In this document: positions 28,666 through 58,705 of the stretch, one piece after another
How the letters are laid out: every line of letters starts with the position of its first letter
How positions within the stretch are numbered: position 1 is the first letter of the stretch
Translations under genes and position numbers: made by a program
Source: Phenylobacterium sp.
GTDB lineage: Bacteria > Pseudomonadota > Alphaproteobacteria > Caulobacterales > Caulobacteraceae
DNA length: 64,000 nt
NCBI RefSeq assembly: GCF_025351295.1
Contig: NZ_JANXWD010000064.1
Location: 1-64,000, forward strand
Direction of reading: 5' to 3'
The notes under the pieces: model-generated
What the model was told of the DNA's origin: nothing
The model's database searches: none
Seen by the model: only the letters and a program-made list of their open reading frames with translations

Positions 28666-29736
28666 ATGGACATCGGCGTCTTCATACCGATCGGCAACAA
28701 CGGCTGGCTCATTTCGGAGACGGCGCCGCAGTACATGCCGTCGTTCGCGCTGAACAAGCAGGTGGTCCAGAGCGCCGAACGCCATGGCTTCGACTTCGCG
28801 CTCTCGATGATCAAGCTGCGCGGGTTCGGCGGGAAGACGCAGTTCTGGGAGCACAACCTGGAGAGCTTCACCCTGATGGCCGGGCTGGCGGCGGTGACCG
28901 GCAGGATCAAGATCTTCGCCACCGCGGCCACCCTGACCATGCCGGCCCCGATCGTGGCGCGGATGGCCTCGACCATCGATTCAATCGCGCCCGGCCGGTT
29001 CGGCATCAACCTGATCACCGGCTGGCAGAAGGCCGAGTACGACCAGATGGGCCTGTGGCCCGGCGAGAGCCACTACAGGGACCGTTACGCCTACCTGGCC
29101 GAGTACGCGACGGTGCTGAAAGAGCTGATGGAGACCGGCGTCAGCGACTTCAAGGGTCAGTACCTGCAGATGCACGACTGCCGGGTCAGCCCGAAGCCCA
29201 CGCCAGGCGTGAAGATCATCTGCGCCGGCTCCAGCGACGAGGGCCTGGCGTTCACGGCGCAGTATGCGGACTACTCGTTCGCGCTGGGCAAGGGGACGAA
29301 TACCCCGACCGCCTTCGCTCCGGTCAACACCCGCCTGGCCGCGGCCAAGGCCAGGACCGGCCGCGACGTCGCCGCCTACATCCTGTTCATGATCATCGCC
29401 GACCAGACCGACGACAAGGCCATGGCCAAGTGGCAGCTCTACCGCGACGGGGCCGACCAGGAGGCCCTGGCCTGGCTGACGAACCAGGCGGCGCCCAACG
29501 CCGCGGCCGGAACCTCCAACACCAACACCACCCAGCTGGCCGCCCCGGAGTCTGCGGTGAACCTCAACATGGGCACGCTGGTGGGTTCGTACGAAAGCGT
29601 GGCGCGGATGCTGGACGAGGTGGCCGCCGTGCCGGGGACGGCCGGCGTGCTGCTGGTGTTCGACGAGTTCGTGCGCGGCGTGGAGGCCTTCGGGACGAAG
29701 ATCCAGCCGCTGATGCGGAGCCGCGCGCATGTCTGA
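28666..29736 (+). CDS. rutA: pyrimidine monooxygenase RutA
   Basis: A 356-residue luciferase-family FMN monooxygenase that opens the uracil ring between N3 and C4 to give ureidoacrylate, using reduced FMN and O2. The start [53 protein letters not shown] and [20 protein letters not shown] are diagnostic of RutA. The ATG at 28666 follows a strong GGGGGAGGGG. rutB overlaps by 8 nt. No flavin reductase (rutF) is visible in the window; it must be supplied from elsewhere. Confidence 0.96.
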
Positions 29737-30445
29737 GCGGCCCACCGTCCCGCGCGCCGGGGTTGTCACCCTGCCGGCGCGGCCGGAGAACCTGCCCATC
29801 AACCCCCGCGAGACCGCGCTGATCGTGGTGGACATGCAGAACGCCTATGCCTCGCCGGGCGGCTACCTGGACCTGGCCGGGTTCGATATCGCGGGCGCGG
29901 CGGCGGTAATCGAGAGGATCGCGCTGGCCATCGCGGCGGCGCGGGCGGCGGGCGTGCAGGTGGTGTTCTTCCAGAACGGCTGGGACCCGGACTATGTGGA
30001 GGCCGGCGGGCCTGGCTCGCCCAACTGGTGGAAGTCCAACGCGCTGAAGACCATGCGCGACCGGCCGGAGCTGGAGCGGTCGCTGCTGGCCAAGGGGACC
30101 TGGGACTATGCCCTGGTGGACCGGCTCAAGCCGCAGACGGGCGACATCGTCATCCCCAAGCCGCGCTACTCGGCCTTCTTCAACACCGCGCTCGATTCGA
30201 TGCTGCGGGCGCGCGGGGTGAAGACCCTGACCTTCTGTGGCATCGCCACCAACGTCTGCGTGGAGTCGACCCTGCGCGACGGCTATCACCTGGAATACTT
30301 CGGCGTGCTGCTCGAGGACGCCACCCACCAGGCGGGCCCGGCCTTCCTGCAGGCGGCGAGCGTCTACAACGTCGAGAACTTCTTCGGCTGGGTATCCAGC
30401 ACCGCCGACTTCTGCGGCGCGATCGGCCAGGCCCCGCCGGAGTGA
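29729..30445 (+). CDS. rutB: ureidoacrylate amidohydrolase RutB
   Basis: A 238-residue isochorismatase-fold amidase that cleaves ureidoacrylate to aminoacrylate and carbamate. The Asp-Lys-Cys triad can be placed in [14 protein letters not shown] (about residue 34), a central [10 protein letters not shown], and [16 protein letters not shown] (Cys about 176). The sequence AGFDIAGA and the C-terminal [16 protein letters not shown] agree with RutB. It overlaps rutA and is followed by a small hairpin. Confidence 0.94.
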
Positions 30446-30452
30446 TAGCGCC

Positions 30453-30481
30453 GCTCTCCTCCCCCTGCGGGTGAGGAGAGC
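30453..30481. repeat. short inverted repeat after rutB
   Basis: CTCTCCTC and GAGGAGAG arms flank a C-rich loop just after the rutB stop. This is a solo half of the second dispersed repeat family (GGGTGAGGA type). It could also act as an RNA hairpin between rutB and rutC. Confidence 0.6.
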
Positions 30482-30574
30482 GAGGCGGTCCACGGAGTTC
30501 ATGGGTGGCCCCGGACAAGTCGGGCCATGACGATCTAAGATGGGCGTGAACAGCTGATTTCTCGAGGATCCACC

Positions 30575-30964
30575 ATGCCCAAGACCGCCGTCCTGCCGCC
30601 CGGGACCCAGAAGCCGATCGCCCCGTTCTCGCCCGGCGCCCTGGCCGACGGGGTGGTCTACGTTTCGGGGACACTTGCGTTCGACAAGGACAACAACGTC
30701 GCCCACGTCGGCGATGCCGAGGGCCAGACGCGGCAGGTGCTGGAGACCATCAAGTCGGTGATCGAGACCGCCGGCGGGACCATGGACGACGTCACCATGA
30801 ACTACATCTTCCTCAAGGACTGGGCCGACTACGCCGCGCTCAACAAGGTCTATGCGGAGTATTTCCCGGGCGACAAGCCGGCGCGGTTCTGCATCCAGTG
30901 CGGGCTGGTGCGGCCGGACTTCCTGGTCGAGATCGCCTCCATCGCCCACACCGGAAAGACCTGA
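30575..30964 (+). CDS. rutC: 3-aminoacrylate deaminase RutC (RidA family)
   Basis: A 129-residue RidA-family protein that hydrolyses aminoacrylate from RutB towards malonic semialdehyde. [23 protein letters not shown] strands, [19 protein letters not shown], and [16 protein letters not shown] (with the substrate-binding Arg) are all visible. It is separated from rutB by about 130 nt holding one hairpin and has its own AGGATCC ribosome site. Confidence 0.92.
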
Positions 30965-30975
30965 CCCCGACCCCG

Positions 30976-31096
30976 CTCATCCCGGCGACGGCCGGGACCC
31001 GGATCGCAAACCCAGGGCGCTTCTGGGATAGATGCCGCGCCTTTCGAGCCCACCACACAGCCATCCCATCTGGACCCCGGCCTTCGCCGGGACGAG
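30976..31096. repeat. dispersed inverted repeat, family A
   Basis: CTCATCCCGGCGACGGCCGGG on the left is mirrored by CCCGGCCTTCGCCGGGACGAG on the right. It lies between rutC and the nitroreductase gene and shares its core with the elements at 15484 and 38052. Confidence 0.75.
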
Positions 31097-31108
31097 CGGA
31101 AGACGAAG

Positions 31109-31705
31109 ATGACCACAGCGAACAACCGCACCAGCGAGCACGATGTCGACCCGATGTTCCTGGCCCGATGGTCGCCGCGCGCCTTCACCGGCGAGGTGAT
31201 GCCGCACGATGTGCTGATGAGCCTGTTCGAGGCGGCCCATTGGGCGCCCTCGGCCTTCAACGCCCAGCCGTGGCGGTTCGTCTACGCCCGCCGCGAGACC
31301 GCCGACTGGGACCGGCTGTTCGAGGTGCTGATCCCCTACAATCAGCTGTGGGTGAAGAACGCCTCGGTGCTGATGTTCATCGTCTCCGACCGTGCGCGCC
31401 GCACGCCGGGCGGCGTGCCGCAGCCGCTGCGCAGCCACGCGTTCGATGCGGGCGCGGCCTGGGCCTACCTGGCGCTGCAGGCCAGCCGCCTGGGCTGGGC
31501 GGCCCACGGGATGGCTGGCTTCGACCTCGCAAAATCCTACGAGGTCCTGGGGGTCGCCGAGGCTGACTATCAGGTCGAGGCGGCCATCGCCGTCGGCCGC
31601 CAGGCCGACCCCTCAGTGCTGGACGAGGCGTTCCGCGCCCGCGAGGTCCCCAGCCCGCGCAACCCGGTCGCCAGCTTCGCCTTCGAAGGGACGTTCAAGC
31701 CCTGA
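31109..31705 (+). CDS. nitroreductase-family protein in the RutE position
   Basis: A 198-residue FMN-dependent nitroreductase-fold oxidoreductase: ARWSPRAFTGEVMP, AAHWAPSAFNAQPWRFVYA and LALQASRLGWAAHGMAGFD are the family's FMN-binding segments. In Rut clusters the malonic-semialdehyde reductase RutE belongs to this fold, but this sequence looks more like a generic nitroreductase than E. coli RutE. Position after rutC makes a RutE-like role plausible. A family-A repeat separates it from rutC. Confidence 0.75.
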   Translation: MTTANNRTSEHDVDPMFLARWSPRAFTGEVMPHDVLMSLFEAAHWAPSAFNAQPWRFVYARRETADWDRLFEVLIPYNQLWVKNASVLMFIVSDRARRTPGGVPQPLRSHAFDAGAAWAYLALQASRLGWAAHGMAGFDLAKSYEVLGVAEADYQVEAAIAVGRQADPSVLDEAFRAREVPSPRNPVASFAFEGTFKP

Positions 31706-31708
31706 GCT

Positions 31709-32128
31709 TCAGGTCTTCGGCGACCATTCCGGCGGGGCCAGTTCGAAGCCTGCGAAACGGAAGCCGGGCACGACCACGCAGGCCACCAGGGTCCAGCCGC
31801 CCTCAGCCTCCGCGGCCTGCCACTCGCGGGTGCGGACCAGCCTTTGCGGCGACTGGCCGGGCTCCGGGCCCAGCAGCGCCTCGACGATCACCCCGTCGGA
31901 GGCGGTCGACAGCCGCAGCGGCGCGCCGGCCTGGAAGATCCACAGCTCCTCAGCGTCCACCCGATGCCAGTGCGAGCGGTGGCCGTCTTCCAGCAGGTAC
32001 AGGATCGCGGTGCCGGCGGCGCGTCCGTCCGGCATCGCGGCCTCGGACCGCCAGGTCTCGCGATACCAGCCGCCCTCGGGATGCGGCCGCAGGCCCAGGC
32101 GTTCGATCATCTCCACGGCGCTCGTCAT
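31709..32128 (-). CDS. cupin (DUF985-type)
   Basis: A 139-residue cupin_5/DUF985 protein. Seen: LGLRPHPEGGWYRETWRS, TAILYLLEDGHRSHWHRVDA (metal-binding His pair), EELWIFQAG and VVPGFRFAGFELA. Members have the cupin barrel but no agreed reaction; some are annotated as sugar epimerase-like. It is convergent with the nitroreductase gene and divergent from the adenosine deaminase gene. Confidence 0.82.
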   Translation of the reverse strand: MTSAVEMIERLGLRPHPEGGWYRETWRSEAAMPDGRAAGTAILYLLEDGHRSHWHRVDAEELWIFQAGAPLRLSTASDGVIVEALLGPEPGQSPQRLVRTREWQAAEAEGGWTLVACVVVPGFRFAGFELAPPEWSPKT

Positions 32129-32207
32129 GGCGCCAGAAAAGGCCAAACCAGCCCGCCGCGCCATCGGAAGCTTGACCGGCGGCGCGAGGTCGGGCGGGTT
32201 GCCACGT

Positions 32208-33677
32208 ATGAGACGAATCTTCCTCGCCCTGGGCGCCGCCCTCGTGCTCGCCGCCCCGGCCGCCGCCGCCGCGCCGGACCTCGGCAAGATGAACGCCGCC
32301 GAGCTGGCGGCCTTCATGCACGCCTTCCCCAAGGGCGGCGAGTTGCACAACCACCTGGGCGGCGGGACGCCGGCGGAGGCGCTACTGGCCTGGGCGGTCG
32401 AGGATGGCCTCTGCGTCGACACGCTCGAGCTGGCGATCCGGCTGGCCTGCTCGGGACCGAACCTCAAGCCGGCCGCCGAGGTCGCCGCCGACGAGACCCT
32501 GCGCTCGGCCCTGATCGACAGCCTGACGGTGCGCCACCCCGGGTTTCGCGACCGCTCCGGCCACGACCAGTTCTTCAGCGCCTTCAGCCGCCGCGGCAGC
32601 CTGCCGAAACGCGCCGGCGACGCCCTGGCTGAGACCCTGGACGGCCTGGCCCGCCAGAACACCTTCTATGCCGAGCTGATGGTGACGCCACAGATCGCCG
32701 CCTCGCGGGGGCTGGGCGCCAAGGTCGGCTGGCGGGGCGACCCGGCGAAGACCCGGGCCGCCCTGAGCGACGCAGGGCTGGAGACGCTGGTCCCCGCCGT
32801 GATCGCCGACACCGATGCGATGGAGGGCCGCGCCCGCCAGGTCCTGCGGTGCGGGACGCCACAGGCCCATGCCGGCTGCCAGGTCACCGCCCGCTACCTG
32901 TTCCAGGCCATCCGCCAGGGGCCGCCGGAGCAGACCATGGCCCAGCTCCAGCTCGGCGTGGCGGCCATCGCCGCCGACCGGCGCTGGGTCGGGCTGCAGC
33001 TGGTGGCGCCCGAGGACAGCCCCGACGCGGTGAAATACTACGACGTCCACATGCGGATCGTCGCTGAGCTCACCGACCGGGGCCGCAAGGTCCCGGTCGC
33101 CCTGCACGCCGGTGAACTCACCCTGAAGCTGGTGACCCCGGAGGCGGCGAGCTACCACGTCCGCGACGCGGTGCGGGTGGCCGGCGCCCGGCGGATCGGC
33201 CACGGCACGGACCTGCCGAACGAGGTCGGCGCCGACGCCCTGGCCGCTGAGATGGCCGCCAAGGGCGTACTGGTCGAGGTGAACCTTATCTCCAACGGCT
33301 CGATCCTGGAGGTGACGCCGCAGGACCACCCCTACGCCTGGCTGCGGACCAAGGGCGTGCCGGTCAGCCTCTCCACCGACGACGCCGGCATCACCCGCAG
33401 CGACCTCTCGGGCGACTATGCGACTGCGGTGCAGACTGGGGCCACCTACGACGACCTGAAGACCTCAGCCCGCAACGCGCTCGCCTTCAGCTTCCTGAGC
33501 GGCGAGGGCCTGTGGACGGACCCGAACGTCTATCGCCAGCCAGTGGCGGCGTGTACGGGACAGATTGGCGCCGACTCGCCGAAGGGGACCTGCGCCGACC
33601 TTGTGGCCGGAAGCGACAAGGCTCGCGAACAGTGGCGCCACGAGCGGCTGCTGAAGGCGTTCGAGGCCGGTCGCTGA
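32208..33677 (+). CDS. exported adenosine deaminase-like protein
   Basis: A 489-residue adenosine-deaminase-superfamily protein with a cleavable Sec signal (IFLALGAALVLAAPAAAAAP), so it should act in the periplasm or outside. Metal and catalytic motifs are GGELHNHLGG (HxH), VALHAGELTL (His-Ala-Gly-Glu), RIGHGTDL and STDDAGITRSDL. It is longer than housekeeping adenosine deaminases (about 340), as secreted ADGF-like enzymes are. It would turn adenosine into inosine and ammonia outside the inner membrane, next to purine uptake genes. The ATG at 32208 starts the signal. Confidence 0.85.
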   Translation: MRRIFLALGAALVLAAPAAAAAPDLGKMNAAELAAFMHAFPKGGELHNHLGGGTPAEALLAWAVEDGLCVDTLELAIRLACSGPNLKPAAEVAADETLRSALIDSLTVRHPGFRDRSGHDQFFSAFSRRGSLPKRAGDALAETLDGLARQNTFYAELMVTPQIAASRGLGAKVGWRGDPAKTRAALSDAGLETLVPAVIADTDAMEGRARQVLRCGTPQAHAGCQVTARYLFQAIRQGPPEQTMAQLQLGVAAIAADRRWVGLQLVAPEDSPDAVKYYDVHMRIVAELTDRGRKVPVALHAGELTLKLVTPEAASYHVRDAVRVAGARRIGHGTDLPNEVGADALAAEMAAKGVLVEVNLISNGSILEVTPQDHPYAWLRTKGVPVSLSTDDAGITRSDLSGDYATAVQTGATYDDLKTSARNALAFSFLSGEGLWTDPNVYRQPVAACTGQIGADSPKGTCADLVAGSDKAREQWRHERLLKAFEAGR

Positions 33678-33815: not shown

Positions 33816-35144
33816 TTAAGCCTCGAACGCCATGTACACGAACCGCGCCACGAACAGCGCCGCCAGGGCGAACAGCAGCCAGTCGTTCCGGACCACCCGG
33901 CGGGCAGCCAGCTTCAGCAGGGCGTAGGCGATCACCCCGAACGCCAGGCCGTTGGCGATGGAGAAGGTGAGCGGGATGGTCACCAGGGTCAGGAAGGCCG
34001 GGATCGCCACCACCGGGTCCTCCCAGTCGATCTCGGTCAGCGGCGACATCATCATCGCGCCCACCAGGATCAGCGCCGGGGCGGTGGCCGCCGCCGGGAT
34101 CACCTGGGCCCAGGGGGCGACGAACAGGGTGGCCAGGAACAGCAGGCCCACCACCACGGCGGTCAGGCCGGTGCGGCCGCCGGCCGACACGCCGGACGCA
34201 CTCTCGATGTAGCTGACCACCGTCGAGGTGCCGGCCAGCGACCCCACGATGGTGGCGGTGGCGTCGGCCAACAGGATGCGGTTCAGCCGCGGGATGGTCC
34301 CATCCGGCTGGACCAGACCGGCCTTCTTTGAGACCGCCACCAGGGTGCCGATATTGTCGAACAGGTCGACGAACAGGAAGACGAACAGGATCTCCAGCAG
34401 CGCCAGGCCGAAGCCCTTGCCGCCGACCCCCAGCGCCGCCGGAATGTCCAGCTGCAGCGCCGTGCCGGTCATCTGCGCCAGGCTGTAGGGCTGCGGCGCC
34501 CACTCGGCCAGGCCCAGGACCCAGCCCAGGACGGCGGTGCCGACGATGCCGATGAAGATCCCGCCGCGCACCTTCAGCACCGTCAGCACCGACAGGATCG
34601 CCAGGCCCAGCAGCGCCAGCTGGGTGGTCGCCAGATGGATGTCGCCCAGCCCGACGAAGGTCGCCTTGTTGGCCACCACGATCCCGGCGTTGCGCAGGCC
34701 GATGAAGGCGATGAACAGGCCGATCCCGGCGGCGATGGCCGAGAATAGCGCCCGCGGTATGGCGCTGACGATCAGCTGCCGCACGCCGACCACCGTGAGC
34801 AGGATGAACAGGACGCCGGAGATGAACACCAGCCCCAGCGCCGTCTGCCAGGGGATGTGCATGGCGCCCACCACGGTGAAGGCGAAATAGGCGTTGAGCC
34901 CCATGCCGGGCGCCAGCGCGATCGGATAGTTGGCCAGGAACCCCATCAGCAGGCAGCCGACCCCGGCCGCCAGGCAGGTCGCCGCCGCTACGCCGGCCAG
35001 CGGCATGCCGGTGGTCGACAGGATCGCCGGATTGACCAGCACGATATAGGCCATGGTCAGGAAAGTGGTGGCCCCGGCCAGCACCTCGGTCTGCAGGCTG
35101 GACCCGCGCGCGCGAACCTGGAACGTGCGCTCCAGGAAACTCAC
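33816..35144 (-). CDS. NCS2/AzgA-type purine base permease
   Basis: A 442-residue nucleobase permease of the AzgA/PbuG branch (adenine, guanine or hypoxanthine uptake). SFLERTFQVRARGSSLQTEV, ATTFLTMAYIVLVNPAILS, APGMGLNAYFAFTVV and FLFVDLFDNIGTLVAV are family landmarks; about twelve hydrophobic segments follow. The GTG start at 35144 overlaps the stop of the NUP gene. It would bring in purine bases for the XdhABC/PuuD route downstream. Confidence 0.9.
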   Translation of the reverse strand: MSFLERTFQVRARGSSLQTEVLAGATTFLTMAYIVLVNPAILSTTGMPLAGVAAATCLAAGVGCLLMGFLANYPIALAPGMGLNAYFAFTVVGAMHIPWQTALGLVFISGVLFILLTVVGVRQLIVSAIPRALFSAIAAGIGLFIAFIGLRNAGIVVANKATFVGLGDIHLATTQLALLGLAILSVLTVLKVRGGIFIGIVGTAVLGWVLGLAEWAPQPYSLAQMTGTALQLDIPAALGVGGKGFGLALLEILFVFLFVDLFDNIGTLVAVSKKAGLVQPDGTIPRLNRILLADATATIVGSLAGTSTVVSYIESASGVSAGGRTGLTAVVVGLLFLATLFVAPWAQVIPAAATAPALILVGAMMMSPLTEIDWEDPVVAIPAFLTLVTIPLTFSIANGLAFGVIAYALLKLAARRVVRNDWLLFALAALFVARFVYMAFEA

Positions 35145-36166
35145 GGTTTCGCCTGCGGGATCGTGGTCCCGTACCGGTCCCAGCCGGCGACCAGGGCCTT
35201 CACCACCGGCGATCCCACGAGATAGGCCGCCTCGAAGGCCGCCGCCGCGCCGCCTTCGGTGAACTCCACCACCTGTGCCTCCCCGTCGCCCTCGCGGGTG
35301 TAGTTGCTGCCGGTGCGCAGCATCAGCACGCGGCGGATGTCCAGCTTGCCGGCGTCGCCGAACAGGGTGAGCACGTCCATGATTCCCTGGTCCTCGCACG
35401 CGCTCATGGCGAACACGCCGTGGCCGTCGGTCCAGATCTTCACCCAGTCGCGGGCCCACTGGGTGCGCAGGTCGCCGTGCCAGAAGCGCACCGTGCCCAG
35501 GTCGTCGCCGATGAACACGTGCGGCAGCGTCTGGGCCGCGGGCTCGCTCTTGAACCGGGCGCGCGTGGCGGCCAGGTGCGGATTGTCGGCCAGCGGTACG
35601 TCCTTGGTCAGCTGATAGGCCCATTGGGTCAGGCCGGGGTCCATCCGCCAGACCATGCCGCTGGAGCCCGGCGCGCTGCCCTTGATCCCCGGCCGGGGCG
35701 TGGCCAGTGCATAGAGGCCCCACGGCCAGTCCTTCGGCGTCTCGCGGTCGTCGAGCTCGAAGATCGGGTCTGCGTCGACCACATAGTTGGCCCAGGCGGC
35801 GCTGCCGATCGAGCCGGCGCGCGGGTCGACGCCGGCGATGCCGGCCACGATCCAGTAGGCGTGGCTGAGGTCCAGCTCAGGGTCCAGCAGCAGGGCCGCG
35901 ACGCTCTCCCGCGCCCGGGCGCGCATGCCGGTGACCACCCCCAGCACGCCATCCTCCGAGTAGAGCACCCGGCCCTCGATCCCGGGGACCTTGAGCGGGT
36001 GGGTGAGGGGATAGCGCGCCGCCCAGGCCTGGAACTCGCCGGATTTCTTGGCGGCCGAGGCGCCGGACTCGAACGTGGTCAGCACCACCACCTTGACCAG
36101 CATCGGCTTGGCCAAGGCCAGGCCAGGCGCGAGCAGGGCCGCGATCAGGACGAGCAGGCGAAGCAT
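35141..36166 (-). CDS. NUP-family nucleoside protein (periplasmic)
   Basis: A 341-residue member of the purine nucleoside permease (NUP) family. It has an N-terminal signal (LLVLIAALLAPGLALA) but no run of membrane segments, so it is not a classical permease. VLTTFESGASAAKKSGEFQAW, IVAGIAGVDPRAGSIGSAAW and FAMSACEDQGIMDVL are shared with the family, and the fold resembles nucleoside phosphorylases. It overlaps the AzgA-like permease gene. A periplasmic nucleoside-binding or cleaving role is inferred, fitting the secreted adenosine deaminase nearby. Confidence 0.85.
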   Translation of the reverse strand: MLRLLVLIAALLAPGLALAKPMLVKVVVLTTFESGASAAKKSGEFQAWAARYPLTHPLKVPGIEGRVLYSEDGVLGVVTGMRARARESVAALLLDPELDLSHAYWIVAGIAGVDPRAGSIGSAAWANYVVDADPIFELDDRETPKDWPWGLYALATPRPGIKGSAPGSSGMVWRMDPGLTQWAYQLTKDVPLADNPHLAATRARFKSEPAAQTLPHVFIGDDLGTVRFWHGDLRTQWARDWVKIWTDGHGVFAMSACEDQGIMDVLTLFGDAGKLDIRRVLMLRTGSNYTREGDGEAQVVEFTEGGAAAAFEAAYLVGSPVVKALVAGWDRYGTTIPQAKP

Positions 36167-36223: not shown

Positions 36224-37531
36224 TCAGGCGCCGTCGCGGCGGTGGGCGAGGCGGCCTGCCAGATATGTACGCTCCACCGCCCGATCGTCGGCCAGGATCG
36301 AGAGCACGAACAGGGTCTCGGCCAGCGTCTTCGCCTTGGCGGTCCGCCGCGCCAGCAGCGGCGTTGCGGCCAGGTCCAGCACCAGGAAGTCGGCCTCCTT
36401 GCCGGGGACCAGGTTGCCGACCTTGTCGTCGATGTGCAGGGCCTTCGCGCCGGCCAAGGTCGCCAGGTAGAAGGCGTGCAGCGGGTCCAGGTTGTCGCCG
36501 CGCAACTGACCCACCTTGTAGGCTTCGCCCATCATGTGCAGCAGCGAGAAGCTGCCGCCGCCGCCGACGTCGGTCCCGAGCGCCGTGTTCATGCCACAGG
36601 CGCAGGCCTGTTTCAGGCTGAACAGGCCGCTGCCCAGCAGCAGGTTCGACGAGGGGCAGAAGGCCGCCGAGGCGCCGGCCCTGGCCAGGCGGGTCAGCGC
36701 GTCGTCGGTCGAGTGGACACAGTGGGCGAACACCGAGCGCGGCCCGACCAGGCCGAAGCGGTCGTAGACGTCCAGGTAGTCGCGGGCGTCGGGGAACAGC
36801 CGGGCGACCTCGGCGATTTCGTCCAGGTTCTCCGACATGTGGGTCTGGACCAGCACGTCCGGATGGGCGGCGGCCACCTCGCCGGCCATGGCCAACTGGG
36901 TGTCGGTCGAGGTCACCGCGAACCGCAGCGTCACCGCATAGCCCAGCCGCCCGCGGCCCCGCCAGACGCGGATCAGCGCCTCGGTATCGGCGCGACCGCT
37001 CTCGACGGTGTCGGTCAGCCCGGCCGGCGCGGCCCGGTCCATCAGCACCTTACCGGCCACCAGGCGCATGTCGCGGGCCAGCGCGGCCTCGAACAGGGCG
37101 TCCACCGAGCCCTTGTGGACCGTGCAGAACACCAGGGCGCTGGTGGTGCCGTTGGCCAGCAGCTGGTCCAGGAAGAAGGCCGCCGTGGCGTCGGCGTGCG
37201 CCCGGTCGGCGAAGGCCTGCTCGGCGGGGAAGGTGTGGGTGTGCAGCCAGTCCAGCAGCTGGGTCCCCCAGGCGGCCATCACGTCCACCTGCGGATAGTG
37301 GACGTGGGCGTCGACGAACCCCGGCGTGATCAGCCGGCCGGGAAGCTCGATGACCTCGGTCCCGCCGGCCAGGCCCTGCGCCAGGTCGGCATAGGCGCCG
37401 AACGCCGCCACATGCCCGTCCTCCACCACCAGCAGGCCGTCGGGATGGTAGGAGGACGCCTCGCCCGCCGGCGCGCGGCTGGGGTCGTCCAGCATGTGGA
37501 GCAGGGCGGCGCGGTAGGCCTGGCGGCTCAT
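36224..37531 (-). CDS. guaD: guanine deaminase
   Basis: A 435-residue amidohydrolase converting guanine to xanthine. Motifs in order: TPGFVDAHVHYPQVDVMAAW (HxH with guanine-deaminase PQ), HTFPAEQAF, QTHMSENLDEI, FAHCVHSTD, FCPSSNLLLGSGLF and GTDVGGGGSFS. The C-terminal phrase GNLVPGKEADFLVLD is family-typical. Its ATG at 37531 overlaps the stop of the AllA gene by ATGA. It feeds xanthine to XdhAB. Confidence 0.93.
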   Translation of the reverse strand: MSRQAYRAALLHMLDDPSRAPAGEASSYHPDGLLVVEDGHVAAFGAYADLAQGLAGGTEVIELPGRLITPGFVDAHVHYPQVDVMAAWGTQLLDWLHTHTFPAEQAFADRAHADATAAFFLDQLLANGTTSALVFCTVHKGSVDALFEAALARDMRLVAGKVLMDRAAPAGLTDTVESGRADTEALIRVWRGRGRLGYAVTLRFAVTSTDTQLAMAGEVAAAHPDVLVQTHMSENLDEIAEVARLFPDARDYLDVYDRFGLVGPRSVFAHCVHSTDDALTRLARAGASAAFCPSSNLLLGSGLFSLKQACACGMNTALGTDVGGGGSFSLLHMMGEAYKVGQLRGDNLDPLHAFYLATLAGAKALHIDDKVGNLVPGKEADFLVLDLAATPLLARRTAKAKTLAETLFVLSILADDRAVERTYLAGRLAHRRDGA

Positions 37532-38040
37532 GCTCGGTCCGTTTGGGGGGTGACGGCGATCCAGTCCGCCTGCGCCAGCTCGATCTCGTCCAGGTTCTTG
37601 CCCATCGCGCCGTCGCGATCGATGACCACGAAGTCGCTCTCGGCCTCCAGGGCCAGCAGGAAGTGGTGCCACACGCCCTTGGCGTAGTTGACCCCCTGGC
37701 TGGCCGTCGCGCGGAACACCCGGACTTGGCGCACGTCGAACGCGCCCCGCGGCGCGACCGCCACCAGATAGGGCCGCCCCTGCATGGGGATGAAGGCCTG
37801 GCTGCCCAGCGGATGGCGCTCGAAGATCTTTAGCACCAGCGGCGCGAGAGGTTTCGACCGGAACAGGCTGACGATAGTGTGGCCGCCCTCGTCGCGGGTG
37901 TCGATCCCGGCGAGGTCGTTGAACCGCGTCGTCCAGCCATAGTTGATAGGGACGACCTCGGCCGCGCCAGCGGCCTCGATCACATCCCCGAACGGCGCGA
38001 ACGCGTCGGCGGTCAGGGGTTCGGGAACCAGTTCGCGCAT
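37528..38040 (-). CDS. allA: ureidoglycolate lyase
   Basis: A 170-residue AllA-family enzyme that cleaves ureidoglycolate into glyoxylate and urea. The start RELVPEPLTADAFAPFGDVI, NYGWTTRFNDLAGI, VSLFRSKPLAPLVLKIFERH and QAFIPMQGRPYLVAVAP are standard for the family. The ATG at 38040 is preferred; a GTG sits one codon upstream. It completes the ureide pathway after allantoicase and yields urea for the urease operon. Confidence 0.93.
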   Translation of the reverse strand: MRELVPEPLTADAFAPFGDVIEAAGAAEVVPINYGWTTRFNDLAGIDTRDEGGHTIVSLFRSKPLAPLVLKIFERHPLGSQAFIPMQGRPYLVAVAPRGAFDVRQVRVFRATASQGVNYAKGVWHHFLLALEAESDFVVIDRDGAMGKNLDEIELAQADWIAVTPQTDRA

Positions 38041-38051
38041 CACATAAACCG

Positions 38052-38173
38052 CTCATCCCGGCGAATGCCGGGACCCAGATGGGATCGCTCAGGGGTGGGC
38101 TCGATCCGCTCGGCGCTCTTCCAACCGGTCACGGACGCTTCTCGATCTGGGTCCCGGCATTCACCGGGATGAG
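38052..38173. repeat. dispersed inverted repeat, family A
   Basis: CTCATCCCGGCGAATGCCGGG and CCCGGCATTCACCGGGATGAG are the outer arms. It lies between puuD and allA, which are otherwise read in the same direction, and would form a long hairpin in that transcript. Confidence 0.8.
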
Positions 38174-40290: not shown

Positions 40291-40328
40291 GGACGCCAGC
40301 GCCTGCGAAATCCAGCCGATCGGCCCGT

Positions 40329-40458: not shown

Positions 40459-40486
40459 GAAGCGGCCTTCTGCGTTGACAAGGTCC

Positions 40487-49558: not shown

Positions 49559-50028
49559 TCCTCTCCGGCCGGGGCGGATATTTCGGTCCTGGCAATGCGC
49601 AACTGCCGGCGCCGCCCATGCTGATGATGGACCGGATCACGGAACTCAGTCTGGGCGGCGGTGAATTCGGCAAGGGTCACGTCGTGGCCGAGTTGGATAT
49701 CACGCCTGACCTCTGGTTCTTCGACTGTCACTTTCCGGGCGATCCGGTCATGCCGGGCTGCCTTGGGTTGGACGCCATGTGGCAGGTGCTGGGCTATTGG
49801 CTGGGCTGGTCGGGTTCGCCGGGCAAGGGACGCGCCCTCGGTGGCGAAGTCAGGTTTCGCGGTGACGTCACGCCAGAGACCCGGCTGGTGCGCTATGAGG
49901 TGAGCATGCGGCAGGTGCGGCGCGGCCAGCTTGCCCTGGGCGTCGCGAACGGTCGGCTGTTTGCGGACGGCGTCTGCGCCTATGTCGCGACCGATCTGCG
50001 AGTCGGAATGATCAGGCCCACGCCCTGA
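49501..50028 (+). CDS. FabA-like 3-hydroxyacyl-ACP dehydratase/isomerase
   Basis: A 175-residue hot-dog-fold dehydratase. It has [40 protein letters not shown] with the catalytic His and Asp, and [11 protein letters not shown]. It would make trans-2- and cis-3-decenoyl-ACP. The GTG start has AGAAGG upstream. No fabB is next to it, unlike the usual fabA-fabB pair, so it may be an extra copy. Its 3' end overlaps ureG by 17 nt on the opposite strand. Confidence 0.87.
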
Positions 50029-50689
50029 TGCCCGCGCCGCCATTTTCCACATTTCCGGACGGCGGGGTCAGCCGGCCGCGCGGCAAGCCGCCGGCTCGGG
50101 CGATGAACGCCACGATCTCATCGACCCCTTCCAGCCGCGTCAGGTCAGAGAACACATAGGGCCGTTCGCCGCGCGCCCGCTCGGTGTCGGCGGCCATCAC
50201 CGAAAGGTCCGCCCCGACATGCGGCGCGAGGTCGGTCTTGTTGATGATCAGCAGGTCGGAGCGGGTGATGGCCGGGCCGCCCTTGCGGGGGATCTTCTCC
50301 CCCTGGCAGACGCTGACGACATAGAGAGTGAGGTCGGCCAGGTCCGGGCTGAAGGTGGCCGCCAGGTTGTCGCCGCCGCTTTCGATGAAGATCACGTCCA
50401 GGTTCGGGTGCCGGCGATTCAGGTCGGCGATGGCGGCCAGGTTCAGGCTGGCGTCCTCGCGGATGGCGGTGTGCGGGCAGCCGCCGGTCTCGACGCCCAG
50501 GATGCGGTCGGCGGGCAGGGCCTGTAGCCGGTTGAGGATCAGGGCGTCCTCCTGGGTGTAGATGTCGTTGGTGACGACGGCGATCGACCAGCGGTCGCGC
50601 ATGGCCTTGCACAGCTTCTCCACCAGGGTGGTCTTGCCGGAGCCGACGGGGCCGCCGACACCGATGCGCAAGGGTCCATGCGAGCTCAT
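50012..50689 (-). CDS. ureG: urease accessory GTPase UreG
   Basis: A 225-residue nickel-delivery GTPase. P-loop [10 protein letters not shown] near the N-terminus, [28 protein letters not shown] (with the Cys-Pro-His nickel site) and [14 protein letters not shown] are intact. It drives nickel insertion with UreE, UreF and UreD. The C-terminal tail crosses into the end of the convergent fabA gene. It ends the urease operon. Confidence 0.96.
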
Positions 50690-51342
50690 GAGATGAACAG
50701 CCTTCCGTCCAGGGTCTCGTGCCGCATGGCGGCGATATCGGAGAGCAGCGCGGCCGAGCCCAGGTCCTCCAGGGTCGACGCCGCCGCGCGGGCGGCGGTG
50801 CGCAGGATCACCGTCTCCAAGCCGGCGATCACCGCCACGGCGTCGGACTGGCCCAGCGGGATGGCGCGGACCGCGACGCTGGTCAGGTTGGCCGCGAAGG
50901 CGTGCAGCCACGCGGTCAGCGCCGGCTCGAGCGGAATGCCCGCCGCCCCGGCCGCCGCGCCCACGGCGACCGGATAGGCCGCGCGGATGATCGGCGGTGG
51001 CTGCCAGGCGGCGACGGCGGTCAGGAAGGCCTCGCCCTGGGCCAGGGTCTCGCGGCGGCGCTCCAGGGACGGGGCCAGGGCCTCGGCCAGCTCCGCGATC
51101 TCGTCGAGGGCGACGTGGTCCTCGCCGGTCACCGCCGTCCAGGCGGCGCGCGCCAGCACGGCGTCGGTCCAGCCGGAACCGTGCTCCAGCACGCCCATGA
51201 TCCAGCCGGAGAGGCTCCTGGCGTCGGTGACCGCGCCCTCGCGGATGGCGGTCTCCAGCCCGTGCGAATAGCCGAACGCCCCGACCGGAAAGGCCGGCGA
51301 GAGCCAGGTCAGGAGGCGGAGCAGGCGGGCCTCAGTGGGCAT
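50686..51342 (-). CDS. ureF: urease accessory protein UreF
   Basis: A 218-residue all-helical chaperone that joins UreG to the UreD-apourease complex. [21 protein letters not shown] near the start, [21 protein letters not shown] and the C-terminal [13 protein letters not shown] are the usual conserved parts. It overlaps both ureE and ureG. Confidence 0.95.
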
Positions 51343-51787
51343 GGTCGTGCGCCCCGTGGTCCTGATAGGCGCCGCCTTCGGGATCGAACGGCGCTTCCAC
51401 CTCGCTGACGTGGGCGCCCTGGTGCTCCAGCATGTGGGCGATGACGTGGTCGCGGCGGATCAGGATGCGGTCGGCGAACACCTGCGCCGCCAGGTGCCGG
51501 TTGCCGATGTGCCAGGCCAGGCGCAGGAGGTCGGCCGGGCTGTGCGCGCGGACCTCCAGCAGCGGCTCCAGCCTGGCTGTCACCCGCACGATGCCCCCGC
51601 TCGGCAGCACCAGCCCGTCGCCATCCTTGAGGTGCGTCGCCTGGGCCAGGTCCAGCAAATATTCGGCCCCTGACGCCCCGGTCAGCACGATCCGCCGACG
51701 ATGGCGGCCGTCATAGTCCAGGGTGACGCTGTCGGCCGGGACGTCGTTCCACGCCCCCGCGGGCAGAATGTCGGTGATGGTGGTCAC
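51332..51787 (-). CDS. ureE: urease accessory protein UreE
   Basis: A 151-residue nickel chaperone. The N-terminal peptide-binding half and C-terminal metal-binding half (HIGNRHLAAQVFADRILIR, DHVIAHMLEHQGAHV) are both present, and a short His-rich tail (DHGAHDHAH) should bind extra nickel. The GTG at 51787 is preferred to a GTG at 51802. It follows ureC by about 50 nt. Confidence 0.93.
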   Translation of the reverse strand: MTTITDILPAGAWNDVPADSVTLDYDGRHRRRIVLTGASGAEYLLDLAQATHLKDGDGLVLPSGGIVRVTARLEPLLEVRAHSPADLLRLAWHIGNRHLAAQVFADRILIRRDHVIAHMLEHQGAHVSEVEAPFDPEGGAYQDHGAHDHAH

Positions 51788-51836
51788 GACGCGCCGCCCC
51801 ACCGATCGTCAGGTTTTTGGAGTGGGTGAGTGCGCA

Positions 51837-53543
51837 TCAAAACAGAAAATACCTCTGCGCCATCGGCAGCACATCGGCGGGTTCGCACGTCAGGATCTCG
51901 CCGTCGGCGCGGACTTCGTAGGTCTCCGGGTCGACCTCGATCACCGGCGTCGCCGAGTTGTGGATCATCGAGGCCTTGGTGAGGCCGCCGCGGGTGTTGC
52001 TCACCGCCACCATCTCCTTCTGCAGGCCCAGCGCCGCCGGTAGCCCGCGCTCGATGGCGAGGCCCGAGGTGAACACGACAGACGACCGGGTCAGCGCCCG
52101 GCCATAGGCCCCGAACATCGGCCGGTAGTGTACCGGCTGCGGCGTCGGGATCGAGGCGTTGGGATCGCCCATGGGCGCCGCCGCGATGCTGCCGCCCAGG
52201 ATCACCAGGTCCGGCTTCACCCCGAAGAAGGCCGGGCTCCACAGCACCAGGTCGGCGCGCTTGCCGGGCTCCACCGAGCCGATGTGGGCGCTCATGCCGT
52301 GGGCGATGGCCGGGTTGATGGTGTATTTGGCGATGTAGCGCTTGACCCGGTTGTTGTCGGCGGCGCCGTCGCCGGGCAGCGAGCCGCGCTGCTTCTTCAT
52401 CTTGTCGGCGGTCTGCCAGGTGCGGATCGCCACCTCGCCGACCCGGCCCATGGCCTGGCTGTCGGACGAGATGATCGAAAGCGCCCCCAGGTCGTGCAGG
52501 ATGTCCTCGGCGGCGATGGTCTCCTTGCGGATCCGGCTCTCGGCGAAGGCCACGTCCTCCGGGATTGACGGGTCCAGGTGGTGGCAGACCATCAGCATGT
52601 CGAGATGCTCGGCCAGGGTGTTCCTGGTGTAGGGCCGGGTCGGGTTGGTGGACGAGGGGATGACATTGGCCAGCCCCGCCACCTTGAGGATGTCCGGCGC
52701 GTGGCCGCCGCCGGCGCCCTCGGTGTGGAAGGCGTGGATGGTGCGGCCCTTGAAGGCGGCGATCGTGTCCTCGACGAAGCCGCTCTCGTTCAAGGTGTCG
52801 GTGTGGATCATGCACTGGACGTCGTGGTCGTCGCAGACGCTGAGCGCGCAGTCGATCGTGGCCGGCGTCGTGCCCCAGTCCTCGTGCAGCTTCAGCGCGC
52901 AGGCGCCCGCCGCGACCTGCTCCACCAGCGCCTCGGGCCGGGCGGCGTTGCCCTTGCCGGAGAAGCCCAGGTTCATCGGGAACGCCTCGGCCGCCTCGAT
53001 CATCCGCTGCAGGTGCCAGGCGCCGGGCGTGCAGGTGGTGGCGTTGGTGCCGGTGGCGGGGCCCGTGCCGCCGCCCAGCATGGTGGTCATGCCGGCCATC
53101 AGCGCCTCTTCGATCTGCTGCGGGCAGATGAAGTGGATGTGCGCGTCCATGCCGCCGGCGGTCAGGATCTTGCCCTCGCCGGCGATCACCTCGGTGCCGG
53201 GGCCGATGACGATGGTGACGCCGGGCTGGACGTCCGGATTGCCGGCCTTGCCGATGGCCAGGATGCGGCCGTCGCGCAGGCCCACGTCGGCCTTCACGAT
53301 CCCCCAGTGGTCGACGATCAGGGCGTTGGTGATGACGGTGTCGGCCGTGCCGGAGGCGCGGGTCGCCTGGGACTGGCCCATCCCGTCGCGGATCACCTTG
53401 CCGCCGCCGAACTTCACCTCCTCGCCATAGATCGTGAAGTCCTGCTCGACCTCGATGAACAGGTCGGTGTCGGCCAGCCGTACGCGGTCGCCGGTGGTCG
53501 GGCCGAACATGTCGGCATAGGCGGCGCGGCTGATGCGAGCCAT
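51837..53543 (-). CDS. ureC: urease alpha (catalytic) subunit
   Basis: A 568-residue urease catalytic subunit. Nickel ligands and the carbamylated Lys can be placed in [46 protein letters not shown] and the active-site flap MVCHHLD. It hydrolyses the urea made by Alc, AllA and probably the URC route into ammonia and carbamate. Confidence 0.97.
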
Positions 53544-53556
53544 CAGGCGTGTTCCA

Positions 53557-53862
53557 TCAGAGGGGACCCATCACGTCTTGCCGGAAGCCATAGACGATGC
53601 GCGCGCCCAGCAGCGGCACGAGGGTCACCTCGCGCTCCTGGCCGGGCTCGAAGCGCACGGCGGTGCCGGCCGCGATGTCCAGCCGCTGGCCGCGCGCGGC
53701 TGCGCGGTCGAAGCGCAGCGCCGGGTTGGTCTCGAAGAAATGATAGTGGCTGCCCACCTGGATCGGCCGGTCGCCGGTGTTGGCCACGCGCAGGGTCGTG
53801 GTCGGCTGCCCGGCGTTCAGCTCGATGTCGCCCGGGGCGGTGATGACCTCGCCCGGGATCAT
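53557..53862 (-). CDS. ureB: urease beta subunit
   Basis: A 101-residue structural subunit: [38 protein letters not shown] and [19 protein letters not shown] are standard. It starts at an ATG that overlaps the end of the small membrane-protein gene by ATGA. Confidence 0.95.
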
Positions 53863-54200
53863 TTGCGGGCCGTGGCCCGGATCCAGAACCAGCCGCCGGC
53901 CAGGATGGCGACAACTAGGCCGGCGAAGGCGATCTGGTGGTCCGGCTGGGTCGCCAGGTGATGCATGGCCTGCGCCACGGTCATGTGCTCGTGGTGGCCT
54001 GGGTGGGCGAGGGCGGGGGTGGCGATCAGGGCGGCGGGCGCGATCCCGAATGCTGTGCGGCCCCAGCACCCCCTCCACCCTTCGGGTCGCCCTCCCCCGC
54101 AGGCGGGGGAGGAACTATAGCCACTCAGTTCCTCACCCGCGAAGCGGGGGAGGGGAACCACGAAGTGGTGGAGGGGGCGTGGAGGCCGTGTGAAGTGCAT
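53859..54200 (-). CDS. small His-rich exported membrane protein between ureA and ureB
   Basis: A 113-residue protein when read from the ATG at 54200, which has GAGGAC upstream. The last 60 residues form a secreted or membrane-anchored protein: a signal-like core ([16 protein letters not shown]), a His-rich segment ([20 protein letters not shown], then PDHQ) and one membrane span ([20 protein letters not shown]). About residues 8-44 are encoded by a family-B dispersed repeat. Without them the N-terminus would be a normal signal peptide. The gene overlaps ureB by ATGA. A nickel-related role is inferred from the His content and place only. Confidence 0.65.
54069..54177. repeat. dispersed inverted repeat, family B, inside a small gene
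   Basis: CCCCCTCCACC at the left is mirrored by GGTGGAGGGGG at the right; inner arms CCCTCCCCCGC/GCGGGGGAGGG and GGAACTATAG/CAGTTCC-like pairs are also visible. It lies within the open frame of the small gene between ureA and ureB. Confidence 0.8.
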
Positions 54201-54210
54201 CGCATAGTCC

Positions 54211-54513
54211 TCAGCGGATCGGGTGGTGGACGGTCACCAGCTTGGTGCCGTCGGGAAAGGTGGCTTCGACCTGGACGTCGTGGATCATGTCGGCGATGCC
54301 CTCCATGACCTGGGCGCGACCGACCACGTGCGCGCCGGCCTCCATCAGCTCGGAGACCGCGCGGCCGTCGCGGGCGCCCTCGACCACGAAGTCGGTGATC
54401 AGGGCGATGGCCTCGGGGTGGTTCAGCTTCACGCCGCGGGCCAGCCGGTTGCGCGCCACAAGGGCGGCCATGGCGACCAGCAGCTTGTCCTTTTCGCGCG
54501 GCGTCAGGTTCAA
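54211..54513 (-). CDS. ureA: urease gamma subunit
   Basis: A 100-residue structural subunit: [40 protein letters not shown] and [19 protein letters not shown] are the family's fixed points. The start is a TTG at 54513, one base after the ureD stop, with GGAGGACC 5-12 nt upstream. No ATG fits the conserved N-terminus. Confidence 0.94.
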
Positions 54514-54514
54514 C

Positions 54515-55411
<897 letters not shown>

Positions 55412-55437: not shown

Positions 55438-55500
55438 GTCGCGCGGTCTCCCTTCAGAGATTCTTGCCATCTCAAGCGCCTAGGATCATGCTCCGGGATC

Positions 55501-55537
55501 AAAGGCCCTGCGCCGGCGAGCCCGCGCGGGGCCTTTT
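55501..55537 (+). terminator. terminator-like hairpin in the URC1 leader
   Basis: AAAGGCCC (55501-55508) pairs with GGGCCTTT (55529-55536) and is followed by another T; the loop is G/C-rich with its own small stem. It lies 24 nt upstream of the URC1 start and before its GGAGG site (about 55544-55548). As an intrinsic terminator in a leader it could act as an attenuator. Confidence 0.5.
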
Positions 55538-55560
55538 CGACTCTGGAGGTTTGCTCGTCC

Positions 55561-56817
<1,257 letters not shown>

Positions 56818-56824
56818 GCTGCGC

Positions 56825-56836
56825 AAAAGCGCTTTT
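56825..56836. repeat. short palindrome
   Basis: AAAAGCGCTTTT, a perfect 12-nt palindrome just after the URC1 stop. Could be part of a weak terminator or an operator. Confidence 0.35.
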
Positions 56837-56846
56837 CATTCTCGAT

Positions 56847-56877
56847 CGCCATCCCCGGCCTTGTGCCGGGGATGGCG
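56847..56877. repeat. hairpin between URC1 and URC4
   Basis: CGCCATCCCCGGC and GCCGGGGATGGCG form perfect 13-nt arms around CTTGT, followed by a T run at about 56884. The core resembles family A. It may tune the expression of URC4 and upp relative to URC1. Confidence 0.6.
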
Positions 56878-56897
56878 AGCCAGTTTTTGGGATCAAG

Positions 56898-58067
56898 GTG
56901 ACGAATTCGGACGAACAGGCGGCCCGCGCGCTTCTCTCCGCCGCCGCGGTGCGGCGTCGCGCGCACGAACTCCTCGCCATCGCCCTCGACGGCCGGCTGG
57001 CGGACTGGCGGATCGACCTCTTACGGCTGGAGGCGGCGGCCGACCTGACGGTCGAGACGGTGCGGCTGAACTATCCCGACCTCAACGTCCCCTTCCACGC
57101 CCGCTGGCGGCACTTCACGGCCGCCGGGCGCGATCTGTGGGCCGAGGCGGACAAGCCCACCGACCCGACAGCGCAGGGCCGGGCAGCCTTCGACCTGGTT
57201 ATCCCCTCGGTGCTGCTGGACGCCGGCGCCGGGGCGACCTGGCGCTACCACGACACGGCGACCGGCGCGGTGCTCGGGCGGTCGGAGGGCCTCGGCGTGG
57301 CCTCCCTGCGGCTGTTCGAGTCTGGCGCCCTGTCGTCCGACCCCGGCGACCCCCTGCGCGCCGACGCTCTGGGCCAGGTCGACGCGGCGACGATCGCCAG
57401 GGCCTTCCAGGTGACTGACGCCAACCCCCTGGTCGGGCTGGAGGGCCGCGCAGCCCTGCTGCGCCGCCTGGGCGAGGCGGTCGGCCGGCCCGGCGCCCTG
57501 TTCGACATCATGGCCCGCCATGCCGACAATGGCCGGCTGCCGGCGCCGGTGATTCTGGAGGTGCTGCTGCAGGCCCTCGGACCGATCTGGTCGGGGCGGC
57601 TCAGCCTGGGCGGCATCCCGCTGGGCGACTGCTGGCGCCATCCCGCGGTCGAGGGGTTCGTCCCGCTGCACAAGCTGTCGCAGTGGATGAGCTATTCGCT
57701 GATCGAGCCGCTGGAGGCGTCGGGCATCACCGTCACGAACATCGATGGGCTCACGGGCCTGGCCGAATACCGCAACGGCGGCCTCTTCGTGGACACCGGC
57801 GTGCTGGTGCTCAGGAATCCCGAGGACGCCCGCATAGCCCATCCCGTCGACAGCCCCCTGGTCGTCGGCTGGCGATCCCTGACCGTCGCGCTGTTGGACA
57901 AGCTGGCGCCGATGGTGCGCGAGCGGCTGGGTGTGACCGCCAAGGCCTTCCCGCTGGGCCGCGTGCTGGAGGGGGGCTCCTGGGCCGCCGGCCGGCGCAT
58001 CGCCGCCAGCCTCCGTCCCGACCTGTCCCCGCCCATCGCCGTCATCAGCGACGGCACCGTCTTCTGA
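56898..58067 (+). CDS. URC4/DUF1688 protein (uracil catabolism)
   Basis: A 389-residue member of the DUF1688/URC4 family: [60 protein letters not shown] and [19 protein letters not shown] are family phrases. URC4 is required for growth on uracil in the URC route; its reaction is not firmly known. The GTG start lies 80 nt after URC1. upp follows 8 nt after its stop. Confidence 0.87.
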
Positions 58068-58075
58068 GGAACCCC

Positions 58076-58705
58076 ATGCAGGGCGTCACCGTCGTCGACC
58101 ATCCGCTGGTGCAGCACAAGCTGACCCTGATGCGCAAGAAGGACACCTCCACCCGCACCTTCCGCCAGCTGCTGAAGGAGATCGGGGCGCTGCTCTGCTA
58201 CGAGGTCACCCGCGACCTGCCGCTGGAACTGATCGAGATCGAGACGCCGCTGGCGACGATGCAGGCGCCGCAGCTGGTCGGCAAGAAGCTGGTGTTCGCG
58301 GCCATCCTGCGCTCGGGGATGGGCATGCTGGAGGGGATGCTGGACCTGGCGCCGGCCGCCCGCGTGGCCCACGTCGGCCTCTACCGCGATCCCGTCACGC
58401 TCAATTGCGTGGAATACTATTTCAAGGCGCCGCTCGATATCGCCGAGCGGACGGTGATCGTCATCGACCCCATGCTGGCGACTGGAAACACCGCCATCGC
58501 CGCCGTCGATCGCCTCAAGGAGGCCGGCGCGAGGTCGATCCGCATGGCCTGCCTGCTGGCCTCGCCGGAGGGGATTTCGAAGTTCCAGGGCCACCACCCC
58601 GGCGTGCCCCTCTGGACGGCCGCCGTGGACGAAAGACTCAATGATCACGGCTACATCCTGCCTGGCCTGGGCGACGCCGGCGACCGGATGTACGGCACCA
58701 GGTGA
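58076..58705 (+). CDS. upp: uracil phosphoribosyltransferase
   Basis: A 209-residue UPRT converting uracil and PRPP to [38 protein letters not shown], the PRPP loop [17 protein letters not shown] and the C-terminal [17 protein letters not shown] are all standard. In the URC route UMP made here is the first degraded intermediate, so the gene's position is functional and not only salvage. Confidence 0.95.

What the first reader, a model, noticed from the sequence alone, without database searches (positions are those of the whole stretch)
28666..58705. Two different uracil degradation routes in one 30-kb region
rutA, rutB and rutC (28666-30964) open the uracil ring directly, while URC1, URC4 (DUF1688) and upp (55561-58705) match the alternative route that first turns uracil into UMP. 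Having both near each other, with a urease operon between that can finish the urea of the second route, is unusual. The Rut set lacks rutD, rutF and rutG here, and the URC set is complete, so one may be dominant or they may serve different conditions.
Basis: partly seen in the sequence, partly recalled or inferred. Interest (0 to 1): 0.75.

Follow-up and report, generated by a model that had tools for sequence, protein, structure and literature searches.

The report
Two uracil pathways, one nucleobase locus
A bacterium of the Phenylobacterium group carries two chemically different ways of breaking open uracil at the two ends of one conserved purine-and-urea degradation gene cluster, and one of the poorly understood enzymes, URC4, is predicted to look like an enzyme that cuts a base off its sugar, which makes its role testable.

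The parts
16659..17513 (+). LOG-family nucleotide phosphoribohydrolase-like gene (PF03641, TIGR00730); its homologue lies within 1.2 kb upstream of rutA in 9 of 12 relatives, here about 11 kb away
28666..29736 (+). rutA, uracil-opening monooxygenase
   Evidence: TIGR03612 657 bits vs cut-off 498
29729..30445 (+). rutB amidohydrolase
   Evidence: TIGR03614 411 vs 378
30575..30964 (+). rutC (Rid family)
   Evidence: TIGR03610 233 vs 169
31109..31705 (+). nitroreductase-family protein, closest solved relative annotated NAD(P)H-flavin oxidoreductase (2fre); candidate stand-in for RutF or RutE
31392..33677 (+). adenosine-deaminase-like ORF (true start not fixed)
   Evidence: PF00962; homologues in relatives
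33816..35723 (-). AZG-type adenine/guanine permease (true start not fixed)
   Evidence: PF00860; nearest solved AZG1
36224..38056 (-). guanine deaminase (true start not fixed)
   Evidence: TIGR02967 553 vs 375
38189..39379 (-). urate oxidase (PF06181 type)
39376..44459 (-). xdhC, xdhB, xdhA (xanthine dehydrogenase and accessory)
44714..45622 (+). puuE allantoinase
   Evidence: TIGR03212 513 vs 425
46196..46900 (+). uraD OHCU decarboxylase (overlong ORF)
46914..47909 (+). allantoicase (releases urea)
50012..55411 (-). urease operon, in order of transcription ureD-ureA-ureB-ureC-ureE-ureF-ureG, divergent from URC1
55464..55492 (+). promoter-like element upstream of URC1: TTGCCA, 17 nt, CATGCT
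   Evidence: alignment of 17 loci; only place in the window with TTGCCA-N17-CANNNT; not found by the sigma-70 scan
55499..55560 (+). URC1 leader: hairpin 55501-55536 followed by a short T run and Shine-Dalgarno
55561..56817 (+). URC1, UTP-cyclohydrolase-like (GCH2 homologue)
   Evidence: NF005536 738 vs 403; 7ej3/7eev 612 bits; tree
56898..58067 (+). URC4 (DUF1688), predicted Qng1-fold N-glycosidase
58076..58705 (+). upp, uracil phosphoribosyltransferase
   Evidence: TIGR01091 262 vs 208

Best explanation
This is a conserved nucleobase-nitrogen locus of Phenylobacterium that degrades purines and uracil and recovers the urea. Uracil can leave by two independent ring openings. (1) Rut (chemistry recalled): RutA, with reduced flavin and O2, opens free uracil; RutB and RutC lead to carbamate, ammonia and malonic semialdehyde, without urea. 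(2) URC: upp makes UMP, cellular kinases make UTP, URC1 opens the ring hydrolytically, and URC4 removes urea from the ribosylurea product as an N-glycosidase; urease then splits that urea and the urea from allantoicase. Shown here: gene identity, open frames, conserved order, placement of URC1 apart from RibA, predicted fold of URC4. From passages of a paper: the order of the URC steps in yeast. Inferred: that both routes work in this species, the exact URC4 substrate (phosphorylated or not), and the reason for keeping both (oxygen and flavin cost versus nucleotide cost).
Against: No expression or growth data. RutF, the flavin reductase that feeds RutA, was not found in the genome. 9 genus members have URC4 without RutA and 5 RutA without URC4, so neither needs the other. 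In 4 of the 19 genomes with both (G353, G375, G397, G412) they are not in this arrangement. 8 of 28 URC4 genomes lack both urease and urea carboxylase at the strict thresholds used. Fold similarity does not prove URC4 activity; the sequence profile comparison was not significant (probability 0.9%).
Confidence: 0.75

Rival explanations
1. The two sets are unrelated passengers: URC and urease joined a purine cluster, rut joined it separately, and the vicinity has no functional meaning.
For: URC-only, rut-only and unlinked genomes exist. Outside the genus the two look independent: 2 of 287 in the order (expected 1.0, p 0.27) and 2 of 395 in the phylum (expected 1.5, p 0.66). Rut and URC trees of 14 genomes agree only in part and place the window differently. 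In G332 deaminase and permease stand next to the CoA-transferase gene with no purine or URC gene between. The URC1 leader hairpin was found before URC1 only, not before rut.
Against: Linkage is kept in 9 genomes although URC4 has diverged to 75% identity; Rut and URC distances correlate among the 9 (r 0.71, 1 of 2000 permutations as high), although common descent alone gives this too.
Confidence: 0.3
2. Only one route works on uracil here. Rut may be impaired because RutF is missing, or URC may serve removal of uridine nucleotides rather than growth on uracil.
For: No RutF match in the genome at E<=0.001; 8 of 28 URC4 genomes with neither urease nor urea carboxylase detected.
Against: RutA, B and C are intact and above cut-off, and a flavin-oxidoreductase-like nitroreductase follows rutC here and in the linked relatives, which may replace RutF.
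Confidence: 0.2
3. The 55561 gene is a riboflavin GTP cyclohydrolase II (RibA).
For: It holds a GCH2 domain with the Cys-x10-Cys-x-Cys arrangement (their role as zinc ligands in RibA is recalled).
Against: RibA model score 45 against a cut-off of 206; 29-33% identity to three RibA chains against 73% to 7ej3 over the aligned domain, and a 100% split in the tree.
Confidence: 0.02

Closest known systems
Rut pathway of Escherichia coli (rutABCDEFG; gene set recalled)
   Same: rutA, rutB, rutC equivalogs in one direction
   Different: No rutF found in the genome; no rutD or rutG recognised among the window genes scanned; a nitroreductase closer to a flavin oxidoreductase than to the RutE-type model follows; a LOG-family gene is near rutA.
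URC pathway of Lachancea kluyveri (URC1, URC4, URC6 and urea amidolyase)
   Same: URC1, URC4 and a uracil phosphoribosyltransferase together (yeast steps from passages of PMC7530994)
   Different: Urease stands in for the yeast urea amidolyase; embedded in a purine cluster; a conserved leader before URC1. URC8 was not searched.
UTP cyclohydrolase, taken to be PDB 7EJ3/7EEV (Zhang et al. 2021, ACS Catal., seen only as a title in a reference list)
   Same: URC1 aligns over nearly its whole length, 612 bits, 73% identical in the domain
   Different: Activity not tested here; the entries are named GTP cyclohydrolase II in the file, and their link to that paper is my recollection and inference.
Queuosine-5'-monophosphate N-glycosidase Qng1 (DUF2419)
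   Different: 13-18% identity, no Pfam match but DUF1688, Asp replaced by Glu, profile comparison not significant.

Membership tests
Rut pathway | RutA, RutB and RutC equivalogs over curated cut-offs | tested here: met
Rut pathway | RutF flavin reductase | tested here: not met
   no match in the genome at E<=0.001; a nitroreductase may substitute, inferred
Rut pathway | RutG uracil transporter and RutD | tested here: inconclusive
   not among the window genes scanned; not searched genome-wide
URC pathway | URC1 and URC4 side by side with a uracil phosphoribosyltransferase | tested here: met
   28 of 30 related loci show URC1, URC4 and upp, L078 ends before upp and L092 starts inside URC4
URC pathway | an enzyme that degrades urea | tested here: met
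   urease operon next door; but 8 of 28 genus members with URC4 show neither urease nor urea carboxylase
URC pathway | UTP (or UMP) ring opening by URC1 in vitro | not testable with these tools
   needs an enzyme assay
GTP cyclohydrolase II (RibA) | score over the RibA equivalog cut-off and grouping with RibA | tested here: not met
   45 vs 206 bits; tree
Qng1 / DUF2419 family (URC4) | recognisable by the sequence family | tested here: not met
   only DUF1688 at E<=0.001; hhalign against two Qng1 fragments probability 0.9%
Qng1 / DUF2419 family (URC4) | Qng1 fold (of the predicted model) | tested here: met
Qng1 / DUF2419 family (URC4) | active-site Lys and Asp | tested here: inconclusive
   Lys conserved, Asp replaced by invariant Glu, matched by sequence context and not by superposition
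Known Rfam RNA family (URC1 leader) | match at gathering score | tested here: not met
   only sub-threshold matches at E 0.9 or worse in the region

The most novel reading that the evidence does not exclude
URC4 (DUF1688), found in yeasts and bacteria, is an N-glycosidase of the Qng1 fold that uses a Lys/Glu pair to release urea from a ribosylurea nucleotide, and so is an evolutionary sibling of the queuosine salvage enzyme. In Phenylobacterium its operon carries its own covarying 5' leader hairpin, a candidate attenuator or mRNA stabiliser, and is kept together with Rut as a two-outlet uracil system in one purine-pyrimidine-urea locus.
Probability: 0.45. Interest if true: 0.75.

Novelty: new variant of a known kind. 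Interest (0 to 1): 0.6.

Why it matters
Rut and URC are named as alternatives in the passages seen of PMC12507026 and PMC10741476. Species that hold both in one conserved locus give a natural test of what each is for: Rut needs oxygen and reduced flavin, URC spends nucleotide energy and makes urea (Rut chemistry recalled). The predicted Qng1 fold gives a concrete reaction and two residues to mutate for URC4, a family still named 'protein of unknown function' in Pfam and without a solved relative found by sequence.

Tried and rejected
RibA for URC1: rejected. RutR control in the window: one site with 3 mismatches, 0.79 expected, none near rut or URC, although RutR-like boxes lie before URC1 in L091, L087 and L086 and before rutB in L062 and L063 (box recalled). 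URC4 relatives among solved structures by sequence: best E 0.17-0.33, not credible. The leader as a control element shared with rut or the purine genes: not found; the covariance model hits strongly only upstream of URC1, and these 23 hits are its own 21 training rows plus second copies of two of those genomes. The terminator scan and the sigma-70 scan found nothing in that region, so 'attenuator' and 'promoter' are candidate readings. In the window an alternative fold pairs the 5' CUCCGGG with the Shine-Dalgarno; I set it aside because the inferred start of transcription lies after it, which is itself unproven. Rut needing URC or the reverse: rejected. Fold search: families not listed are not excluded. 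Literature: no held paper has rutA, URC1 and uracil together; none joins URC4 or DUF1688 with queuosine or N-glycosidase (DUF1688 also); of the papers with Rut pathway and URC pathway or uracil I read passages of two that name both routes; the RutR comparative paper PMC5343134 names no URC genes in the passages seen. Most subscription papers are not held, so this is weak evidence of novelty.

Rows left out: alignment A1 used 34 of 42 URC4 proteins and A2 12 of 41 URC1 proteins; the RibA tree used 12 of 41 URC1; one search dropped tblastn hits under 45% identity and, as, overlapping weaker hits; the gene trees used 14 genomes. RutA surveys counted matches at E<=1e-100, urease at 1e-20, urea carboxylase at 1e-200, so fragments are missed. 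Correction: the order table had a wrong total (299 instead of 287, p 0.25); redone (p 0.27).
Full report
WHAT IS THERE. RutA, RutB and RutC pass the NCBIfam equivalog cut-offs, URC1 passes NF005536, upp passes TIGR01091 and URC4 passes DUF1688. One RutA over cut-off and one URC4 were found in the genome, both here. The genome is 4.6 Mb in 167 contigs, 99.9% complete. The nearest named relatives are Phenylobacterium and unnamed Caulobacterales genomes. Between the two sets lie a nitroreductase-family gene, an adenosine-deaminase-like gene, an AZG-type permease, guanine deaminase, urate oxidase, xdhCBA, allantoinase puuE, a dienelactone-hydrolase-like gene, OHCU decarboxylase, allantoicase, a short stretch with a PIN/Phd pair, a TetR gene and fabA, and the urease operon. 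So the window holds a route from guanine to urea and ammonia, with a uracil route at each end.

CONSERVATION. In the genus survey of 101 genomes URC4 occurs in 28, RutA in 24, both in 19, neither in 68; 6.7 would be expected, odds ratio 28.7, Fisher p 1e-9, without correction for kinship. In 9 of the 19, the window included, both are on one contig 16.6 to 27.2 kb apart. For the 8 relatives among these I mapped the interval with the window's proteins: gene order is the same; urease is missing in G303, the permease in G303 and G313, and the hydrolase gene after puuE is present in 4 of the 8. In 4 of 19 the sets are not in this arrangement: G353, G375, G397, and G412, which is G307. The other 6 (G356, G357, G362, G370, G379, G415) are unresolved: different contigs, in at least four of them (G356, G357, G362, G370) broken at contig ends. 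Outside the genus, 17 of 287 order genomes have URC4, 17 have RutA and 2 have both (expected 1.0, p 0.27). In the phylum sample outside the genus 24 of 395 have URC4, 25 RutA, 2 both (expected 1.5, p 0.66). The three distinct genomes are G017 and G698 (different contigs) and G061 (about 473 kb apart). Of 15 URC4 genomes from outside Caulobacterales, one has a RutA-like match, below cut-off. So co-linkage was seen only in Phenylobacterium.

MODULES. A rut-only genome (G332) runs LOG gene-rutABC-nitroreductase-deaminase-permease and then straight to the CoA-transferase gene that elsewhere follows upp: the purine-URC block is absent from this place. G275, with URC4 and no RutA, has the purine genes directly beside URC1 without urease. 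Trees of the Rut and URC proteins of 14 genomes share the groups G299-G300-G302, G303-G313 and G307-G375-G397, but place the window differently; some nodes are weak. The best reading is mostly joint inheritance with losses and perhaps some exchange.

RUT END. RutF gave no match in the genome. The gene after rutC is not RutE by curated score (47.6 vs 152); its nearest solved relative is annotated NAD(P)H-flavin oxidoreductase (2fre, 208 bits), so it may feed RutA with reduced flavin. This is inference. A LOG-family gene, related to enzymes that release a base from a riboside monophosphate, lies on the same strand within 1.2 kb upstream of rutA in 9 of the 12 RutA-bearing Caulobacterales genomes. 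In the window the homologue is at 16659-17513, about 11 kb upstream. Part of the segment between (LysR, NDH2-like, DoxX-like and YHS genes) also stands beside rutA in G356.

URC END. URC1 is 73% identical in its domain to 7ej3 and 29-33% to three RibA chains; the tree separates the groups with 100% support. The 7ej3 and 7eev entries are named GTP cyclohydrolase II in the file. I take them to be the UTP cyclohydrolase of Zhang et al. 2021, whose title I saw only in the reference list of PMC12507026. [quoted passage not shown] In bacteria urease can take the last step. In the genus 18 of 28 URC4 genomes have urease (22 of 101 overall; odds ratio 31, p 2e-9, kinship uncorrected), in 15 of these within about 6 kb of URC4. 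Urea carboxylase occurs in 27 of 101 genomes but in only 2 of the 28 (G329, G414), and 8 of 28 have neither. Those species may excrete urea, as is argued for marine purine users in passages of PMC11698098. Allantoicase next door is an equal source of urea for the urease.

LEADER OF URC1. Before URC1, 21 of 27 Caulobacterales loci and none of 14 others carry the motif [CT]CAAAGG that opens a hairpin closed by GGCCTTTT or a variant, followed by a Shine-Dalgarno. It is preceded by TTGCCA-N17-CANNNT in the window and by similar elements in the aligned loci. The consensus helix has ten pairs, four with changes on both sides; the covariation score exceeded all 500 shuffles, with relatedness uncontrolled; folding z of the window leader is -3.6. 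The six Caulobacterales loci without it are three of genus g2 and three of family f3. By eye, Bradyrhizobium loci and L088 have a different hairpin with a T run at the same place. No Rfam match. Function unknown; an attenuator or a stabilising 5' hairpin are the candidates.

REGULATION ELSEWHERE. In a SAR116 genome (L091) a RutR-like TetR gene (186 bits, under the 368 cut-off) lies directly before URC1 with an exact RutR-type box between. L087 (1 mismatch) and L086, Thiomonas (2 mismatches) have such a box before URC1, and L062 and L063 (1 mismatch each) before rutB; these are 5 of the 8 boxes with at most 2 mismatches in 1.33 Mb. Thirty simulated sets gave on average 0, 0.03 and 0.9 boxes at 0, 1 and 2 mismatches against 1, 3 and 4 observed. 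The box is recalled; passages of PMC10891134 give only a palindrome of about 16 bp. Regulators of the RutR kind may thus govern either route in other bacteria. The window has no such box.

VERDICT. Confirmed observation, partly supported interpretation. The parts belong to known kinds; the conserved two-outlet locus, the URC4 fold assignment and the URC1 leader were not found described in the held literature (leader: Rfam only).

Noticed in passing
L091 8061-8713; L087 200-215; L086 8669-8684: RutR-type palindromes directly upstream of URC1 in SAR116, an unnamed proteobacterium and Thiomonas; in L091 a RutR-like TetR gene lies next to it.
   Followed up: partly
window 47916-50028: A PIN/Phd toxin-antitoxin pair, a TetR gene and fabA lie between allantoicase and ureG; no homologue was listed at this place in the linked relatives.
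   Followed up: no
window 14087-15352: A conserved protein of about 430 residues without Pfam or NCBIfam match, found with a TonB receptor and a hydrolase upstream of rutA in several relatives.
   Followed up: partly
window 53105-53391 (+): Rfam 5_ureB_sRNA match (104 bits, cut-off 40) antisense to ureC; it may only reflect conservation of the urease coding sequence.
   Followed up: no
window 62382-62459 (+): Rfam suhB/MmgR small RNA match, 49 bits against a cut-off of 41.
   Followed up: no
L047 6972-7619: A lone ureF homologue near URC1 in G086, a genome without detected urease alpha subunit: possible relic of a lost urease operon.
   Followed up: no
L069 8648-8744, L074 8656-8734: Repeated copies of a GGGCCTTTTCGACTCTGG-like unit in the URC1 leader, as if by slippage.
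   Followed up: no
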